Of a DNA stretch of 35,384 nt, positions 4,353 through 35,384 are shown in pieces. This DNA is from Vampirovibrionales bacterium (GTDB taxonomy: Bacteria > Cyanobacteriota > Vampirovibrionia > Vampirovibrionales > JAGQHJ01): positions 1 to 35,384 of the forward strand of contig JANWIO010000043.1 of the NCBI GenBank assembly GCA_025449835.1, read 5' to 3'. Made by a program: the position numbers and the translations under genes. Below the pieces are notes generated by a model, which saw nothing but the letters and a program-made list of their open reading frames with translations, was not told where the DNA came from and searched no databases. Position 1 is the first letter of the stretch. Each line of letters opens with the position of its first letter.

Positions 4353-5850
4353 GAAGCTGGACATGAATCCAAGGACGCGACAATACATCTCGGTCGGTGG
4401 GCATACCACAAGAGGCCAAAATCATTTTAGCCTGCGGGTGCTGAGACTTTAGCTTTTCGTAATAGGCCACTTGTTCGGGATGCAGGTGACTGTTAAACGC
4501 CACAAACACCAAGGTGTCTAAGGGTACCTGTGGCCAAGCTTCTTCGATAAAAGGCGTATCGCCCGTAACAGGATACAAGTGATGTGCCTTGGGGGAAACG
4601 CCATAATACTGGCACCAGCCTAACAGATCCCGACCTTTGATGGCATCCGGTTGATAATGACGCATGGTGTTTCGATCTGGCGCCACTAAGGCCCATTGGG
4701 ATTGGGTACTAAAAGGTAGGGGGCTGATAAACTGATGGTGAAACTCAATGAAAGCCGCTTCTGCCCATTGCAAGGCCAAAGCTGCACAAGCTTCATTTGA
4801 AACAGTCACTTCCGGATAATCATACACCGGCACCTGCGCCAAAAAAGCTTTGGTGTTCAGGATCCGTTCCAATTTTTCATCCAACAGTGCTTCAGAAAAC
4901 TTCCCTTGTTGCACCCGGCTTACCAGAGCCTCAAAGGCATAGAGGGCTTCAGGTAAGGCTCGACGGTACACTAAAATATCTGCCCCAGCCTCTAAAGCCA
5001 TTAAGGCAACTTCCAACGGATCAGAATCACCCCAAACGGCTCCCATCATCAGATCATCCGTAAAAATTAAACCCTTAAATTTAAGTTTGCTCCGAAGCAG
5101 TTGGGTTAACATCGGCTGAGAAAGAGAGGCTGGGATCTTGGGATCAGCTCCAAGAAGCTTCGCCAACTGCGGGTATAGACCATGGGCAGCTAAAACCGCT
5201 GAAAGCTGGTCTTGAATCAAGGCTTCATAAGGTGCAAGCTCTTCTTCCGACCAATGGTCAAAGGTGGGCAATGCCAAATGAGAATCAATAGTACCTGAGC
5301 CATGCCCAGGGAAATGCTTGGCCACAGGCAAAACCCCGGCCTCCAGATGGGTTTTCATCACAATCCGGGCAAAGGGCAGCACTTCATTGGCTTGGCTTCC
5401 AAAGGCCCGCACCCCAATAATGGGATTCATCACCTCTTTGTTGAGATCCACTGTCGGGGCAAAGTTCAGGGTAAAGCCAAGCCAGCGCAACCGACGGGCC
5501 ACTTCTCGATGGACCTGCTCACAAAAATGAACATCCTGCTTTAAGCCAAACACCACCGGCATAATCCCTGTGGGAAAAAGCCAATGGGGTAAGCGCTCAA
5601 CTTGTCCCCCTTCCTGATCAATCCCAACAAAGGGTGGTGGGCCACCTTGAAACCGGTGGGTCTGGTCACTTAAAAAATCTCTCAGGTCCATGGCGGTTTC
5701 AAAGGGCTGTAAATGATGGCGAAAGAGCAGTAAGCCCCCCAAACCGTAACGATAAAAGGGCTCAATCTCCTGGGTCAGGTCAGTGCTATCACTCCCCAGC
5801 ATAAAAAGCTGAGCCACTTTTTCTTCAAGTCGAAGCTGAGGCCATCTCAT
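4276..5850 (-). CDS. nagZ: Beta-N-acetylhexosaminidase, glycoside hydrolase family 3 (NagZ-like)
   Basis: Removes terminal N-acetylglucosamine from muropeptides during peptidoglycan recycling. The GH3 barrel shows the NagZ signature KHFPGHG with downstream DSH (about residues 178-191), whose histidine acts in catalysis. The FTDDLMMGAV motif near residue 264 carries the nucleophile aspartate. The early block GIDQEGGQVERL is also characteristic. At 524 residues it is longer than the single-domain E. coli enzyme (about 340), so it has an extra C-terminal domain as in some Gram-positive homologues. I use ATG at 5850, which overlaps the mnmE stop as ATGA and indicates translational coupling; a TTG four codons upstream is less likely. 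No lipobox or signal peptide is seen, so it is probably cytoplasmic. Confidence 0.9.
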   Translation of the reverse strand: MRWPQLRLEEKVAQLFMLGSDSTDLTQEIEPFYRYGLGGLLLFRHHLQPFETAMDLRDFLSDQTHRFQGGPPPFVGIDQEGGQVERLPHWLFPTGIMPVVFGLKQDVHFCEQVHREVARRLRWLGFTLNFAPTVDLNKEVMNPIIGVRAFGSQANEVLPFARIVMKTHLEAGVLPVAKHFPGHGSGTIDSHLALPTFDHWSEEELAPYEALIQDQLSAVLAAHGLYPQLAKLLGADPKIPASLSQPMLTQLLRSKLKFKGLIFTDDLMMGAVWGDSDPLEVALMALEAGADILVYRRALPEALYAFEALVSRVQQGKFSEALLDEKLERILNTKAFLAQVPVYDYPEVTVSNEACAALALQWAEAAFIEFHHQFISPLPFSTQSQWALVAPDRNTMRHYQPDAIKGRDLLGWCQYYGVSPKAHHLYPVTGDTPFIEEAWPQVPLDTLVFVAFNSHLHPEQVAYYEKLKSQHPQAKMILASCGMPTDRDVLSRPWIHVQLPSFRPAAMQAFVQWLITSPKSTASA

Positions 5851-7223
5851 TTGCCAACACAAAACCTCGAAAAAACAGAATCTAAAACCATCTCAGTGGT
5901 ATCTTGACCCAAAAGTCCTTGAAGTTCCAGCAAGGCATTGGTTAAAGGCACCGTGGCCAAATCCAGGGGAATTTCAGGCTGACTTAAGGTCTGAGCTGCG
6001 TCAGACACTTCTTGCTGTACCAATTTCAGGTGATGAAGCTGACGTTGGGACAATAAAAAACTCATTTCCGTGGGATCTGGAAGTTTTTCAACCGTCTGTT
6101 CCAACCAGCCTTGCAATTGTTCAATACCTTGGCCAGATTGCGCCGAGACCTGAAGCACCGGCCAGTTTGTTGCCGGGGGTTCTGACCCCAGATTGGATTG
6201 AAATTGTGGGGCATCCGCTTTGTTTTGAAGAATCACCCCATGGGCCGCCTGAATTTTACTCAAAAGTTGGTGATCTGCTGAGGTGAGCCCTTGGGAGCCA
6301 TCTAACACATACACCACAGCCTGTGCAGACTCAATGGCCTGCCAGCTCCGCTCAACACCTAAAATTTCAACCCGATCAGCCGTCTCTCGAAGTCCTGCCG
6401 TATCCACCAACGTAACAGGAATCCCTTTTAATGAAAGGGTCTCCCGGATAATATCCCGGGTGGTGCCCGCAATTTCTGTCACAATAGAACGTTCTGATGC
6501 CAGGAGGGCATTGAAAATGGAGGATTTTCCAGCATTGGGCAAGCCAATAATGGCCACTTCAACCCCATCTCGAAACACCTGATTACGGCGATTGAGGTCT
6601 AATTGCTGGTGGATGTCTTGTGAAAGCGCTTCTAACTGTTGTGTCAAAGGCAGCCGCTCCGGCTCTTCTACCTCTTCGGGGAAATCAATGCTGGCGGTTA
6701 AATCGGCTTGAATACGAGCGATTTGGGCTAAATAAGTCTGCAACAAAGTACTTAGGCTTCGGTAATGCAAATTGTGCGCAGAAAGCTTCACCAAAGCTTC
6801 CCCCTGGGCATGAATCAAATCCAAAACCGACTCGGCTTGGGCCAGATCAAGCCTGCCGCTAAGTAGCGCCCTCCGGGTAAACTCACCAGCTGTAGCGGCC
6901 TCGGCCCCATGAATCAAGCAGAGGTTTAAAATTGCCCTGGAGAGATACAATCCCCCATGGCAGTGAATTTCAACACAATCTTCTCCGGTATAACTGTGTG
7001 GTGCCTGAAAAGGCAAAAATAAAACTTCGTCTAAAACCTGCTGGTCCAGGGGGTCCATAATCCAATCCAAGCACACCCGGCCAGGTGTCCATTGTTTTTT
7101 CCCCTGAGAAAGGCCCTGGGCAATATCCCAACTCCTAGGGCCGCTCAGCCGAATGATTGCCACCCCACCCGTTCCGCGTGGTGTGGCAATGGCTGCAATG
7201 GTGGTTTCAGAGAAATCAGACAT
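5847..7223 (-). CDS. mnmE: tRNA modification GTPase MnmE (TrmE)
   Basis: With MnmG it makes the 5-carboxymethylaminomethyl or related modification at the wobble uridine of certain tRNAs. The 458-residue protein has the N-terminal folate-binding domain starting ETTIAAIATPRGTGGVAIIR. A helical domain follows, holding an inserted G domain with P-loop GLPNAGKS (227-234), GTTRD (253-257) and DTAGLR (274-279). The C-terminal CVGK carries the essential cysteine. Length is normal. It is the middle gene of mutS-mnmE-nagZ: its start lies 4 nt after the mutS stop and its stop overlaps the nagZ start. No Shine-Dalgarno is obvious before the ATG, consistent with coupling to mutS translation. Confidence 0.97.
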   Translation of the reverse strand: MSDFSETTIAAIATPRGTGGVAIIRLSGPRSWDIAQGLSQGKKQWTPGRVCLDWIMDPLDQQVLDEVLFLPFQAPHSYTGEDCVEIHCHGGLYLSRAILNLCLIHGAEAATAGEFTRRALLSGRLDLAQAESVLDLIHAQGEALVKLSAHNLHYRSLSTLLQTYLAQIARIQADLTASIDFPEEVEEPERLPLTQQLEALSQDIHQQLDLNRRNQVFRDGVEVAIIGLPNAGKSSIFNALLASERSIVTEIAGTTRDIIRETLSLKGIPVTLVDTAGLRETADRVEILGVERSWQAIESAQAVVYVLDGSQGLTSADHQLLSKIQAAHGVILQNKADAPQFQSNLGSEPPATNWPVLQVSAQSGQGIEQLQGWLEQTVEKLPDPTEMSFLLSQRQLHHLKLVQQEVSDAAQTLSQPEIPLDLATVPLTNALLELQGLLGQDTTEMVLDSVFSRFCVGK

Positions 7224-30479: not shown

Positions 30480-33400
30480 TTATCCTAAAGAGATATTGCT
30501 AAGCGCATCGGCTGTGCCTTGTGGGTTGTTAGCCGTAATAGTGAGGCTTCCAACGCTATCGTTGTTACTTGTAATAGTATAGCTCTCACCATTTTTTGTC
30601 GTTATCTTGATGGAACCATCGGCATTACGTGCTATTGTAGCATTGGGGAGCTGTAGAGGACTACTCAGCGTATCGGTACCTGCAATAGTATTATTGCTAT
30701 CTTGAATAAACAGAGGACCATTTGTACTGCCAGTTGTTGGATTCTTCCATGCTTCAATTGTGTAGGTATCCGTGTTTCCATTAGCGTCAGTTGTGGTAAA
30801 ATTAACCAACCCAAGATCTGCTACTGCCTGAGTTGCTGTTTGGGATGGTAGATAGGCTGATAGTTCAGCATTAAGCTTGTTTCCATCACTATCAGAAACA
30901 AGCGGTATATCTCTACTGGTCGTACGATTATAAACTTTATTTGGATCGATTCCATCGAGACTAAAAACACCATTGCTCATGCTTACAGTACCATCAGCAT
31001 TTGTTGTGATGGTTGCTGCTGGCGGTGTGTTGCCAGTGCTTGCTCCACCGCTAGTTTGACCAGTGCCACTGGTGCCGGAACCGCCTAAACCAAGTGCTGA
31101 AAGAATATCAGAACCATTGGCTGCATTGTTTTGCAAAGCGGATAAAAGGCTTGCAAATAAGCCACTGAAATCTGAGCTTCCACCAGAATCAGAAGACACC
31201 CCTAAGTCACTCGCAGTGAACGTGGTGGTATCACCATCTTTTCCAGAAAACTGTTGCACGGTTGCATCTGAAATAACTTCAGGGGGCGCTGGTGTATTAG
31301 ACCCATCTGCTGGGGGCTGTGTCGCCAAAGTATCAAAGTTCTCCAGAAGGGTCCGGGCAATGACGAAATTTGTTGGAGTTCGGTCAGGCTGATTTGGAAG
31401 GGGAGAGTATCCATTGCTGGCATTATCAAAATAACTTTGAAGGGCTGCCTTCGTCACCGAGGTGCCGCCAAACTGATCGATAAAGTTTGTGACATCAGTG
31501 GTGTTAAAGCTAAATTGTTGGGCTTGTAAATTTTGTAAGTTTTGTAACTGTTGCTGTAGGTCATTGGTATAGGTATTAAGCACGTCATTATCAATTTGAT
31601 TTTCTCGCACTTTGGCGTCTGTTGTGGCTGCGGTGCCCATTTTATTCACCACAGCATCCATATCCCACCGTGTAACAGCGTTGGTGTTGGGATCCGTTTT
31701 TGAAGCAGCGGCCAAATCATCAATATTTTTGGCGGTAATGCCATCAGAAGATTTCGTATCCCCTGAAGCGGCCTGAACAATATTAAAGTTCCCTTCTAAG
31801 AATTCAGCAACTTGTATGTTCTTTTGGCCCTGCATTCCGTCCTGTATGGCCTGGAAAGGATTATTAAGTAGATTAGAAAACGGCTGAGCCACCTGAGATT
31901 GAATATATTGTTTTAGCTCATCTTGGGTTACCGGGCCAGTCCCATCGCCATTATTTACGGTTTTATCCACATCGGAGAGGACCTGTTTGAAAACGGATGC
32001 ATCCACAGGTTGGCCATTCCATGTCGCTGAGGTCGATCCGGGTCCGGGAGGTTGTAAATAAAGACTCTCAAATGTTATTTTTGAGGAATAGTTCATATCA
32101 CTTTCATTGATCCTGTTACCATTTCCATCAAGAGCAGCAAGCTCACCAACATCGGATGCTGAAATCCCCTGATCAATGGGACTGTTTTGGGGACCCAGGG
32201 AATCCAGAGAATCCTGTTTCCACGAAGCAGCATCATAATTGTTCACAAAGAACTGGGCAATACGCTTGTTATCCAAACTAACCGCTGGGAATTGAGAATT
32301 GTTGGCATCATTGCCATCTAAGAAGTCTTGCAGATCCTGCTTGTTCACATAGTTTTTTCCGGTGGCCTTGGATAATTGCTGAATAAAGCTGACTGCATCA
32401 TTTGTATTAAGGGAGGATTGTGCATTGTTCGCAGTGTTATTCACATTGGCTTCACGCTGAGCGCCATCTAAGGTAAGGGCACCACGAGCATCCAGGTTGT
32501 TATTGGCCTGATCGAGATCACCCAAGGTAACTTGGGTATTGTCTTTCCCTTGGGCAGCCATTTTATCCACATCATCGGCAGTCAAGCCAATCTGATCGGA
32601 TTTACCGGCGTCGGCAAACTGATTAAAGTCGCCCAAAAGGATTTCGGTATTGTTAATTTGTTGCTGGGTCGAATCATCAGCCTGGAGTTTGTTTTGACCA
32701 GACAGTTTTGTCAGATAATCTTGAAGTTCTTTTTTCGTGGCAATGCCGTCATGGTTGGTATCTGCATTTTGAATCACCTGTTTCAAACCCGCCACATCGG
32801 CGTCTTTAACGGTGCCAGATTGATCGCTAATCAAACTGGCATAGGCATCGGCTTGGCCATCTCGAATATCGGTTTTAGACAGCTGGGTTGCATCACCATC
32901 CTTGCCAGCGGCATCTTTTATGGAAGATTGGGTAATCTTGTTTGATGTGGAAGAACTCAAAGGCTCAGAGTTGCTGAGTAAGAAGTTGGCCATACCCAGA
33001 TTGTATTGGTCAGCCTCCGTTGCGGGATCTGCGTTTTTAACATAGTTTTGTAAGTCTTCTTTCGTAACATTGCCGCCATCCTGACTTTTCACAAAGTTAA
33101 CCACATCTTGGGTATTAAAGTTATCGGTTTGTGGAGCTGGGGCAGGGGGCAGTTTTGCTAAATCATCATTGGCCGCTTTGAGATCTGCATGGCTCACGCC
33201 AGCTTCACCATCAAGTGCGGCAATATCACTAACTTTGGTGTCATCAACGCCAAGGTTGGTATCTGCTTTAACATCCTGCCCAGCAAGTTTGGCAATTTGA
33301 TCACCATTTTGAAATGCACTAAAATTGTTCACCAGGGTTTTACCGGCATTAATTAATTTTTGGAAAGCTGGGGTTGAGGCTTGAGAATCTTTTTGCAGTG

Positions 33401-33899
33401 AATCGAGCTCTGTTTGCGCCTCATTTTTGGTAATTTGGCCATCGTTATTGGTATCGGCCTTGGTAATAAATTGATTAAAGTCATCAAGAGGCGTTGCTGC
33501 CGGCGGTGAATTGGCCGGGGGCGAGTTTGCTGGGGGTGAGTTTTCTGGGGGTGTGTTTGCAGGTGGCGTGTTTGAAGAATCTGTTGATGAACTTTTGGAA
33601 TTGTCTCCCAAGACGCTCGTTAATAGTACCACCATCAGCATCATTAGGGGCATCATACTCATGCCCCCTCCACCACCTGAAGAATCTCCTGGGGCAGACG
33701 CAGCCATGGGCAAGGCATTAGTTCCATTTCCACCAAAATTAGTACCCAAATTTGAATAATCTTGTGTGCCGTTGGTCCCGCCTAAATTCATCGTATACGA
33801 CGCGTTTCCTAAATCATTGTTTGCAGTACTCCCAGCTGAACCCTGTGAATTCATAATTGTGGGTAAATAGCTTAATAATGTCGAAATATCTAACGTCAT
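30480..33899 (-). CDS. Very large protein with six EF-hand-like repeat modules
   Basis: A 1139-residue protein of unknown function. The N-terminus is Gly/Asn/Ser-rich with a hydrophobic Met/Leu stretch (about 80-97, MSMMPLMMLMVVLL), then a PPANSPPANSPP linker. Six modules of about 110-165 residues begin near 139, 259, 368, 497, 633 and 798. Each has an EF-hand-like piece (best DTNNDGQITKNE at about 149 and DTNHDGIATKKE at about 380) ending xDLQDYL, and a second piece of the type LAALDGxxxxxxxxD. The last 240 residues are Ser/Gly/Thr-rich and beta-like. Calcium binding is likely only in the canonical loops. No standard signal peptide, so export would be non-classical. ATG 33899 follows AGAGGGAC by 6 nt; an upstream GTG (33926) is rejected. 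Confidence 0.85.
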   Translation of the reverse strand: MTLDISTLLSYLPTIMNSQGSAGSTANNDLGNASYTMNLGGTNGTQDYSNLGTNFGGNGTNALPMAASAPGDSSGGGGGMSMMPLMMLMVVLLTSVLGDNSKSSSTDSSNTPPANTPPENSPPANSPPANSPPAATPLDDFNQFITKADTNNDGQITKNEAQTELDSLQKDSQASTPAFQKLINAGKTLVNNFSAFQNGDQIAKLAGQDVKADTNLGVDDTKVSDIAALDGEAGVSHADLKAANDDLAKLPPAPAPQTDNFNTQDVVNFVKSQDGGNVTKEDLQNYVKNADPATEADQYNLGMANFLLSNSEPLSSSTSNKITQSSIKDAAGKDGDATQLSKTDIRDGQADAYASLISDQSGTVKDADVAGLKQVIQNADTNHDGIATKKELQDYLTKLSGQNKLQADDSTQQQINNTEILLGDFNQFADAGKSDQIGLTADDVDKMAAQGKDNTQVTLGDLDQANNNLDARGALTLDGAQREANVNNTANNAQSSLNTNDAVSFIQQLSKATGKNYVNKQDLQDFLDGNDANNSQFPAVSLDNKRIAQFFVNNYDAASWKQDSLDSLGPQNSPIDQGISASDVGELAALDGNGNRINESDMNYSSKITFESLYLQPPGPGSTSATWNGQPVDASVFKQVLSDVDKTVNNGDGTGPVTQDELKQYIQSQVAQPFSNLLNNPFQAIQDGMQGQKNIQVAEFLEGNFNIVQAASGDTKSSDGITAKNIDDLAAASKTDPNTNAVTRWDMDAVVNKMGTAATTDAKVRENQIDNDVLNTYTNDLQQQLQNLQNLQAQQFSFNTTDVTNFIDQFGGTSVTKAALQSYFDNASNGYSPLPNQPDRTPTNFVIARTLLENFDTLATQPPADGSNTPAPPEVISDATVQQFSGKDGDTTTFTASDLGVSSDSGGSSDFSGLFASLLSALQNNAANGSDILSALGLGGSGTSGTGQTSGGASTGNTPPAATITTNADGTVSMSNGVFSLDGIDPNKVYNRTTSRDIPLVSDSDGNKLNAELSAYLPSQTATQAVADLGLVNFTTTDANGNTDTYTIEAWKNPTTGSTNGPLFIQDSNNTIAGTDTLSSPLQLPNATIARNADGSIKITTKNGESYTITSNNDSVGSLTITANNPQGTADALSNISLG

Positions 33900-33933
33900 G
33901 ATTTTGTCCCTCTTAATCTCTATCACTCAGTTA

Positions 33934-33960
33934 AATAAAAAAACAATCATTTAATGATTG
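33934..33960 (-). terminator. Intrinsic terminator between the two EF-hand-module genes
   Basis: On the minus strand, CAATCAT/ATGATTG 7-bp stem with a 3-nt loop followed by a seven-T run. It ends the upstream gene at 34119, so the second gene needs its own promoter or read-through. The stem is AT-rich and the T-run is strong. Confidence 0.7.
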
Positions 33961-34118: not shown

Positions 34119-35384
34119 TTAGCCGCTTTGTGTCATTGTGTTATTTATTCCTTCGTGATAGATAATCGGCTCAGCAGCTGCTATATCTGCCTGAGAAAGG
34201 TAGCCTGTATTACCATCCTTACCTGAAATTTGCTGAACACGATCGACAGTAACATAGGATATCATGGTATTTGGTGGCAAAAGCCCCCCCATCTGGAACA
34301 TCCCAGCCGGCATTTCAATGGCAACATTCTGCTGTAAAAGCATTTCAATAATATTGGCAGTATCGGTATCAGTTGGGGGAGTCGAGCTTAATAACTCTGA
34401 AAGCTGTTCAGTTGTCGCTCCCGGCACCCGAAGCATAGAAGGAAGAGAAGAGGTACACGACCTAGCTGCACTGAGAACACTAAGAACCCTAGACACAGGA
34501 TATCCTTGTGTATTTGAAGGTGGAGGTGGCGGTGGGGTTGGCGTAATATTAACAATATTGGTCTGAGCATGGGCAAAATCCGCATCTGACACTGAATTTG
34601 GGTTTCCATCCCACGATGCACACCGGCTGGCATCGTCCACACTAAGGGTAAAGCTGGCTTGATCTGAGTTGGGATAATGGTAAACGGTTTCCGTTCCCAT
34701 GGCCTGAAAATTGTTGTAAAGCTTCGTCATAATCGCGGCTTGGTCTGCGTTTTGTGTCGTTGAAATTAGCTGGGTTAACTGCTGCATGGTCATAGAGGTG
34801 CCACCATTAGAAGCTCTCGAAATAATATCATCAATTTCAGACACTGGAATATCATCACTGGCAGGCGGTGGTGGTGGGATTGGCGTCGGCGGTGGGGGTG
34901 GAATCGGAGTAGGAACGGGTGTTGGCACTGGAACATAAACAGGTGTGGGTGCGGGTGTCGGCGTAAAATTATTATTGGTGGTGTTATTATTATTCGTCGT
35001 ATTGTTGTTTGTAATGTTAATGGTACCGCTATTCGTCCCAACGTTTGCATTGCCGCCAGAAGAATCATTGGCGCTTTGCGACTTAGAGCCCCCTGACAAG
35101 AATGACTTCAGTAGCATAATAATCATGAGCATATTGGGGTTCATACTCAACGAATTCGCAAAAGGCAATGCAGGCACTACGGCTGGCGGTGGCGGAGACG
35201 CCATCATGGCAAGAATATTTGAGGAAGGGCCATTTAATGAAGCCAGATCAGACATTGGTGACGTCCCAAAAGCATCGAGTGGATTTTGAATGTTAACTTG
35301 CGGTTGAGAAGGATCCAAGGTTAAGGTCAAATTAGAATTCCCTGGCGTCCAGTAAGGTGTACTGGATTGAAAATAGCTCCCGCC
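34119..35384 (-). CDS. Paralogous EF-hand-module protein with proline-rich hinge (5' end outside window)
   Basis: The frame stays open to the window edge, so the N-terminus is missing; at least 421 residues are visible. A TTG at 35330 is not a convincing start because open sequence (GGSYFQSSTPYW) continues before it. From the N-terminal side it has a hydrophobic Met/Leu segment (NPNMLMIIMLLKSFLSGGSK), much like the neighbour, an Asn/Thr-rich tract and a hinge of P/V/T/I residues. Two modules follow, each ending in an xWDGNPNSVSDAD or GKDGNTGYLSQAD loop. These loops match the neighbour's second half-module. Cysteines are few. It is probably an older duplicate with fewer modules. Confidence 0.8.
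   Translation of the reverse strand, partial: GGSYFQSSTPYWTPGNSNLTLTLDPSQPQVNIQNPLDAFGTSPMSDLASLNGPSSNILAMMASPPPPAVVPALPFANSLSMNPNMLMIIMLLKSFLSGGSKSQSANDSSGGNANVGTNSGTINITNNNTTNNNNTTNNNFTPTPAPTPVYVPVPTPVPTPIPPPPPTPIPPPPPASDDIPVSEIDDIISRASNGGTSMTMQQLTQLISTTQNADQAAIMTKLYNNFQAMGTETVYHYPNSDQASFTLSVDDASRCASWDGNPNSVSDADFAHAQTNIVNITPTPPPPPPSNTQGYPVSRVLSVLSAARSCTSSLPSMLRVPGATTEQLSELLSSTPPTDTDTANIIEMLLQQNVAIEMPAGMFQMGGLLPPNTMISYVTVDRVQQISGKDGNTGYLSQADIAAAEPIIYHEGINNTMTQSG

What the first reader, a model, noticed from the sequence alone, without database searches (positions are those of the whole stretch)
30480..33899. Six-module EF-hand-like giant protein of unknown function
The repeats combine two half-modules: an EF-hand-like segment ending DLQxYL and a segment LAxxDGxxxxxxxD. 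Only some loops keep canonical calcium ligands, so modules may be structural. Met/Leu-rich hydrophobic segment, no classical signal, and dual low-complexity ends suggest a surface or secreted filament-like protein. This could be an adhesion or prey-interaction factor in a predatory or host-associated lineage; that role is speculation.
Basis: partly seen in the sequence, partly recalled or inferred. Interest (0 to 1): 0.6.

Follow-up and report, generated by a model that had tools for sequence, protein, structure and literature searches.

The report
Six-unit calcium-loop surface-type protein
A bacterium related to algae-attacking non-photosynthetic cyanobacteria makes a large, highly acidic protein built of six calcium-hand-like units, one of at least nine such proteins in its genome; it is probably exported and becomes rigid in calcium outside the cell, which would make it a candidate for the cell-surface or attachment material of this little-studied group.

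Summary
The ORF at 33899..30480 (-), 1139 aa, carries six modules of about 110-140 aa. A profile built only from other genomes' modules finds exactly these six (142 bits; best of 1000 shuffles 11.5). Pfam EF-hand models match above cut-off, and AlphaFold2 gives one module EF-hand helix-loop-helix elements (pLDDT 87). New details: modules alternate between two types (A-B-A-B-A-B). Only two of six first loops keep all calcium ligands, while a shorter third loop, DG[ND]xxx[IV]SxxD, carries the family's only invariant Asp. The full module is essentially confined to one order of the class that includes Gastranaerophilales (probably Vampirovibrionales, inferred). At least nine ORFs of this genome carry it, in shuffled architectures. 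About a third of module proteins have a similar short Met/Leu-rich segment at either end. Partner domains in relatives include DUF4214, collagen-like, Fn3-like and a GDPH/DUF1521-like domain known from Ca2+-folding, type III-secreted proteins. Best reading: a Sec-independent exported, calcium-folding surface/matrix protein. Export route (flagellar-type type III or type I) and any role in prey attachment remain inference. It is a new, lineage-specific family using a known fold, not a new kind of system.

The parts
30480..33899 (-). Whole coding sequence, 1139 aa, no Cys, pI 4.1, net charge -71
   Evidence: ribosome-binding-like AGAGGGA upstream of ATG 33899
33663..33899 (-). N-terminal S/N/G/T-rich region, aa 1-79, no signal peptide
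   Evidence: only marginal similarity to the paralogues' shared N-terminus
33606..33662 (-). Met/Leu-rich hydrophobic segment, aa 80-98
   Evidence: similar segments recur in related proteins at either terminus
33501..33605 (-). S/P/N-rich linker with NSPPA repeats
33141..33500 (-). Module M1 (type A), EF-hand-like
   Evidence: profile; AlphaFold2 pLDDT 86.7 pTM 0.79; closest to paralogue on G000:C28, Z about 26
33420..33455 (-). Canonical first EF loop of M1, DTNNDGQITKNE
   Evidence: Pfam EF-hand_1
33180..33212 (-). Third loop of M1, DGEAGVSHADL
32811..33134 (-). Module M2 (type B)
   Evidence: closest to first module of paralogue on G000:C39
32865..32900 (-). Third loop of M2, DGDATQLSKTDI
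32436..32810 (-). Module M3 (type A)
   Evidence: closest to second module of paralogue on G000:C39
32727..32762 (-). Canonical first EF loop of M3, DTNHDGIATKKE
32514..32549 (-). Third loop of M3, GKDNTQVTLGDL (first Asp replaced)
32031..32429 (-). Module M4 (type B)
32094..32129 (-). Third loop of M4, DGNGNRINESDM
31587..32015 (-). Module M5 (type A), first loop with insertion
31659..31694 (-). Third loop of M5, DPNTNAVTRWDM
31152..31520 (-). Module M6 (type B), first loop lost
31203..31238 (-). Third loop of M6, DGDTTTFTASDL
30975..31151 (-). Leu/Gly/Ser-rich spacer after the modules
   Evidence: printed sequence
30483..30974 (-). C-terminal S/T/N-rich region, possibly beta-rich; no Pfam match
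   Evidence: weak match to a low-complexity paralogue only (E 3e-4)
33937..33960 (-). 17-nt perfect hairpin followed by T7, 37 nt upstream of the ATG: terminator- or attenuator-like
   Evidence: sequence; fold z -2.4
34119..35384 (-). Upstream neighbour, 5' end cut by the contig end: divergent paralogue with Met/Leu segment, PT/PP linkers and one and a half modules

Best explanation
It is a modular, highly acidic EF-hand-repeat protein of a lineage-specific family, exported without a Sec signal while unfolded or loosely folded. The N-terminal Met/Leu-rich helix then anchors it in a membrane or makes it self-associate at the cell surface. The six EF-hand-like modules become ordered by the high calcium outside the cell, giving a stiffened, calcium-dependent string of beads that displays the C-terminal region and serves as surface coat, matrix or attachment material. 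Shown: the modules, their A/B alternation, their fold class by sequence and prediction, lineage restriction, lack of signal peptide, and similar Met/Leu segments with extracellular-type partner domains in relatives. Inferred: export, calcium-driven folding, anchoring and adhesion.
For: Six modules by independent profile. EF-hand Pfam hits above cut-off. AlphaFold2 EF-hand elements, and only EF-hand neighbours by title in the VIA rows shown. Two first loops with the full ligand set, and a third loop with an invariant Asp in all 51 modules that cover it. Net charge -71, no Cys. No signal peptide in this protein and polar N-termini through most of the family; the few hydrophobic ones are mostly uncertain start sites. 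Relatives in 16 of 18 genomes of the order carry modules in shuffled architectures: with DUF4214 and with VWD/DUF1521. The Met/Leu segment is enriched in module proteins, 14 of 40 against 22 of 405 other ORFs, and also occurs in a collagen-like/DUF4214 protein. Paralogues with one shared N-terminus carry swapped C-terminal domains (EF-like, Fn3-like by eye, GDPH-type), the pattern expected of a targeting or anchoring module. Precedent: the MIIA/DUF1521 domain of a type III-secreted protein is disordered without Ca2+ and folds on binding it (PMC6506597).
Against: No secretion experiment and no genetic link to a secretion operon: module genes are scattered among other genes. The window protein's own N-terminus matches the paralogues' shared N-terminus only marginally (Z -0.4 to 3.6). 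The Met/Leu segment varies from transmembrane-grade to merely amphipathic, and the enrichment test was defined after seeing examples. Four of six first loops and two of six third loops lack key ligands. VIA Z is at most 5.0 and Foldseek E at least 0.15. Extracellular partner domains are in relatives, not in this protein.
Confidence: 0.5

Rival explanations
1. Substrate of a flagellar-type type III export apparatus, released or delivered towards prey: unfolded acidic EF-hand modules pass the narrow channel and fold in external or host calcium. Nearly every genome of the order has a second, rod-bearing FliF/FlhA system that could export it.
For: Two FlhA in 17 of 18 and two FliF in 17 of 18 genomes of the order. 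The second cluster in this genome holds FliE, FliF, rod proteins and an SLT transglycosylase, with FliH, FlhA and a T3SS-type ATPase on another contig. A module protein in G016 carries a DUF1521/VWD domain, a domain found in type III-secreted NopE proteins (PMC6506597), and a weak XopAW match far under cut-off.
Against: No module gene lies beside the export genes in the loci read. The co-occurrence is order-wide, so it is confounded by descent, and G008 and G010 have the gate but no module match. Two gates may simply be two flagellar systems.
Confidence: 0.25
2. Type I-secreted surface protein (RTX-adhesin-like route) with a C-terminal export signal.
For: RTX-type proteins exist in relatives (L070 and L074 ORFs, by eye); calcium-dependent folding outside the cell is usual in type I substrates (general knowledge).
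Against: No RTX nonapeptide repeats here. The paralogue set shares its N-terminus rather than its C-terminus.
Confidence: 0.2
3. Cytosolic calcium buffer or sensor of calmodulin type.
For: EF-hand modules, no signal peptide, high acidity.
Against: Long N/S/P-rich linkers, Met/Leu segment and partner domains of extracellular type in relatives; most loops degenerate.
Confidence: 0.12
4. Purely structural helical repeat that descends from EF-hands but no longer binds calcium.
For: Four of six first loops lost ligands; the fold is predicted without any metal.
Against: Third loop conserved order-wide with an invariant Asp, and D/N at its third position in over 80%; two complete first loops.
Confidence: 0.2

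Closest known systems
EF-hand superfamily (Pfam EF-hand_1 PF00036, EF-hand_5, EF-hand_6; calmodulin-like pairs)
   Same: 12-residue Dx[DN]xDGx[IV]xxxE first loop between two helices; profile and structure comparisons lead to EF-hand proteins
   Different: Module has one canonical loop, a remnant middle loop and an 11-residue DG[ND]xxx[IV]SxxD loop, with an extra helical insert; no Pfam or NCBIfam model found here covers the whole module
NopE / VIC_001052 MIIA (DUF1521) type III-secreted proteins
   Same: Acidic, near-canonical EF-like calcium sites, no Sec signal; a DUF1521/VWD domain is fused to these modules in a relative (L058) and a similar GDPH domain is in this genome (C142)
   Different: The window protein itself has no DUF1521 or GDPH site; autocleavage is not expected
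DUF4214 proteins
   Same: A paralogue in the same genome joins an M1-like module to four DUF4214 repeats; another joins the Met/Leu segment to collagen-like and DUF4214 repeats
   Different: No DUF4214 in the window protein
RTX adhesins
   Same: Large, acidic, Cys-free, calcium-loop-rich, signal-less (general knowledge)
   Different: No RTX nonapeptide repeats; helical rather than beta-roll units

Membership tests
EF-hand superfamily | Curated EF-hand profile match above cut-off | tested here: met
   EF-hand_1 34.2 bits (cut-off 25.4), EF-hand_6 30.5 (25.0), EF-hand_5 26.3 (25.9)
EF-hand superfamily | Helix-loop-helix geometry | tested here: met
   AlphaFold2 of M1: H5-15, loop with short strand, H25-37, and H87-94, loop, H104-114; pLDDT 86.7. 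Support from fold comparison is weak (Z at most 5.0)
EF-hand superfamily | Full calcium-ligand set in the loops | tested here: inconclusive
   First loops complete in M1 and M3 only; third loops start with Asp-Gly in four of six
EF-hand superfamily | Calcium binding | not testable with these tools
   Needs titration
MIIA / DUF1521 type III-secreted proteins | DUF1521 domain with GDPH site | tested here: not met
   No match in the window protein and none in its genome at E 0.001; present in relative L058
Type III (flagellar-type) substrate | Export through a FlhA/SctV gate | not testable with these tools
   Two gates exist in the order but no link to this gene
RTX / type I-secreted adhesins | HemolysinCabind-type nonapeptide repeats | tested here: not met
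   No such match at E up to 1
Sec-secreted protein or lipoprotein | N-terminal signal peptide | tested here: not met
   First residues MTLDISTLLSYLPTIMNSQG: no basic n-region; hydrophobic segment only at aa 80-98. By hydropathy and inspection, not by a dedicated predictor
DUF4214 proteins | DUF4214 repeat | tested here: not met
   No match in the window protein; present in paralogues
Phage-encoded structural protein | Match to phage protein families | tested here: not met
   No PHROG match for this ORF or P0002; relatives lie in chromosomal contexts

The most novel reading that the evidence does not exclude
An order of non-photosynthetic cyanobacteria uses a large, shuffled family of calcium-folding EF-hand proteins, carrying a mobile Met/Leu helix, as dedicated substrates of a second, rod-bearing flagellum-derived export apparatus that builds the pad or spikes by which such cells attach to their prey.
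Probability: 0.08. Interest if true: 0.85.

Novelty: new variant of a known kind. Interest (0 to 1): 0.45.

Why it matters
An order-restricted family that strings several EF-hand-like units together, alternates two module types and recombines them with DUF4214, collagen-like, Fn3-like and GDPH domains is not covered by any Pfam or NCBIfam model found here. Vampirovibrio chlorellavorus attaches to algae through a pad of unknown composition (PMC4451040), so a family of signal-less, calcium-loop, surface-type proteins in what is probably its order is a concrete, testable candidate set.

Tried and rejected
A five-row two-module alignment was discarded because overlapping rows aligned to themselves; a three-row version gave a weak model, pTM 0.48. 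Foldseek against PDB and the viral library gave nothing significant. Phage origin, suggested by the terminase-like neighbour, was rejected. RNA families near the gene and tRNAs in the window: none. Paper searches on Melainabacteria with EF-hand, or on DUF4214 adhesins, gave nothing specific. NCBIfam: no match.

Full report
What is there. The ORF on the minus strand from the ATG at 33899 to the stop at 30480 encodes 1139 aa; an AGAGGGA stretch precedes that ATG, while the upstream GTG at 33926 lies just after a T run and has none. The protein has no cysteine, pI 4.1 and net charge -71. Its order is: S/N/G/T-rich N-terminus without signal peptide; Met/Leu-rich segment aa 80-98; NSPPA-type linker; six modules; Gly/Ser-rich spacer; a C-terminal S/T/N-rich region of about 165 aa with no family match.

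The repeats are not chance. A profile made from 18 modules of other genomes, with none from this genome, hits the protein six times (i-E 5.7e-14 to 6.1e-8; 142 bits in all), while the best of 1000 shuffled versions reaches 11.5 bits. The repeats are old: they share about 20-30% identity. Pairwise alignment Z-scores show two types in strict alternation: M1, M3, M5 (type A; Z about 4-12 among themselves) and M2, M4, M6 (type B; 8-13), against -0.6 to 4.5 between types. The array is therefore three A-B units. Paralogues carry excerpts of it: the module on contig C28 is closest to M1 (Z 26), and the two modules on C39 are closest to M2 and M3, in that order.

Fold and loops. Pfam EF-hand models match above their cut-offs, and module profiles reach calmodulin and calbindin sequences through the first loop. 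AlphaFold2 on M1, with six window rows, gives pLDDT 86.7 and pTM 0.79 with helix-loop-helix elements at both ends and a helical insert between. The 50 VIA-aligned entries shown appear to be EF-hand proteins by title (calmodulin, NCS-1, troponin C, centrin and others), but Z is only 4.4-5.0 and Foldseek finds nothing significant, so the module is EF-hand-like rather than a textbook pair. Across the order the first loop reads D-x-[DN]-x-D-G-x-x-[ST]-x-x-E; a remnant middle loop keeps G-[IL]-[ST]-x-x-[DE]; a third, shorter loop reads D-G-[ND]-x-x-x-[IV]-S-x-x-D with the last Asp in all 51 modules that cover it. In the window protein only M1 and M3 have complete first loops.

Family. Module matches occur in 16 of 18 genomes of the order (G001 weak and perhaps generic EF-hands). 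Outside the order the matches are weaker (best E 9.6e-9) and mostly stop before the third loop, as expected of generic EF-hands. This genome has at least nine module ORFs on eight contigs. Architectures are shuffled: module plus four DUF4214 repeats (C28); N-terminal S/T/N-rich region plus modules plus C-terminal hydrophobic segment (C39, C111); three modules in a 407-aa frame, and two modules plus VWD/DUF1521 (G016). A short Met/Leu-rich helix flanked by G/N/P/S/T/Q-rich sequence occurs at one end or the other in 14 of 40 module proteins against 22 of 405 other ORFs of the same loci (the definition was made after seeing examples, and some control hits are ordinary membrane proteins or family members). 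It also sits in front of collagen-like and DUF4214 repeats (C67).

The neighbour at 34119-35384 (its 5' end is lost at the contig end) belongs to a set with a clearly shared N-terminal region: two proteins on C19, one with EF-like modules and one with a domain that looks like fibronectin III by eye (Pfam silent), and one on C142 with a GDPH domain that aligns with the DUF1521/VWD region of L058 (the 108-aa alignment includes some Pro-rich linker; blastp E 1e-10 in a one-to-one comparison). Z-scores are 30-37 between the window neighbour and the C19 pair and 14-17 between C142 and the C19 pair; the truncated neighbour against C142 is only 2.4. A constant N-terminus with exchanged C-terminal domains is what a targeting or anchoring module would look like. 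The window's EF protein resembles this N-terminus only marginally (Z -0.4 to 3.6), so this argument reaches it by architecture, not by proven homology.

How it most likely works (inference). A signal-less, acidic, cysteine-free chain of near-canonical EF-hand units would stay loosely folded at cytosolic calcium, pass an export channel, and stiffen outside. The MIIA (DUF1521) domain of a type III-secreted Vibrio protein behaves in this way (PMC6506597), and relatives of the present family carry that domain. The Met/Leu helix would anchor or multimerise the protein, and the modules would form a calcium-stiffened spacer or matrix. In Vampirovibrio chlorellavorus a pad of unknown composition attaches the cell to its algal prey (PMC4451040); a role there is possible, but nothing here tests it.

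Export route. Of the 18 genomes of the order, 17 show two FlhA and 17 show two FliF genes, the exceptions being one each in fragmented assemblies. One set is an ordinary flagellar cluster with FliG. The other has rod-type proteins, FliE, FliF and an SLT transglycosylase together in this genome, with FliH, FlhA and a T3SS-type ATPase adjacent to each other on another contig; its FlhA is 66% identical to Gastranaerophilales homologues. Literature notes partial flagellar gene sets in Gastranaerophilales (PMC4040986, PMC5877343). This second apparatus could be the exporter, but no gene linkage supports it, and type I export is a live alternative.

Lineage. The nearest named FlhA hits are Gastranaerophilales and the window's order appears to be a different one of the same class, with two flagellar-type systems and genomes of 1.7-3.3 Mb; Vampirovibrionales is the likely identity (inference).

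Verdict. Observation confirmed; EF-hand character supported; the surface/secreted reading is favoured but unproven; prey interaction remains speculation. New lineage-specific family on a known fold.

Noticed in passing
G000 loci L068, L191 (second cluster) and L192 (flagellar cluster); L070-L074 in relatives: Nearly every genome of the order has two FlhA and two FliF genes. One cluster is an ordinary flagellar one with FliG; the other has rod proteins, FliE, FliF, an SLT transglycosylase, FliH, FlhA and a T3SS-type ATPase, with an unidentified protein in the place of FliG. Its FlhA is 66% identical to Gastranaerophilales homologues, so the 'partial flagellar sets' reported there may be this second apparatus.
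   Followed up: partly
L044, L046, L050, L085, L086, L098, L190 and others, N-terminal 30-100 aa of unrelated proteins: Many unrelated proteins of this order carry a short motif such as PRFG, VRFG, ARFSG or LRFQG near the N-terminus after a polar stretch; possibly a lineage-specific signal. Seen by eye only.
   Followed up: no
window 28099-29568 (+): Terminase large-subunit-like gene (Pfam Terminase_3, PHROG 2) with no recognised phage neighbours among the window proteins scanned; perhaps a prophage remnant or domesticated gene.
   Followed up: partly
window 25948-26250, 29601-29815, 30265-30372: GC-rich dispersed intergenic repeat containing GAGGGAACGG[AC]C...; the exact 17-mer GAGGGAACGGACCCGGC occurs 10 times in the genome and its reversed control never.
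   Followed up: partly
window 33937-33960 (-): Perfect 17-nt AT-rich hairpin followed by seven T, 37 nt upstream of the EF protein's ATG; a terminator of the upstream gene or an attenuator (fold z -2.4).
   Followed up: partly
L190 (G000:C98) 4361-6019: GH5/GH39-like glycoside hydrolase domain joined by a long PAP-repeat linker to a possible Fn3-like domain; the contig ends inside it.
   Followed up: partly
L189 (G000:C142) 212-1519: Protein with the shared N-terminus, a short hydrophobic segment, PPP linker and a GDPH domain similar to VWD/DUF1521; Pfam does not reach threshold. Possible calcium-dependent autocleaving protein.
   Followed up: partly
window end 35384, L045 start, L086 end, L190 end: Several contigs of this assembly break inside PT/VG/PA-repeat genes, including members of this family, so the full number of such proteins is probably underestimated.
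   Followed up: no
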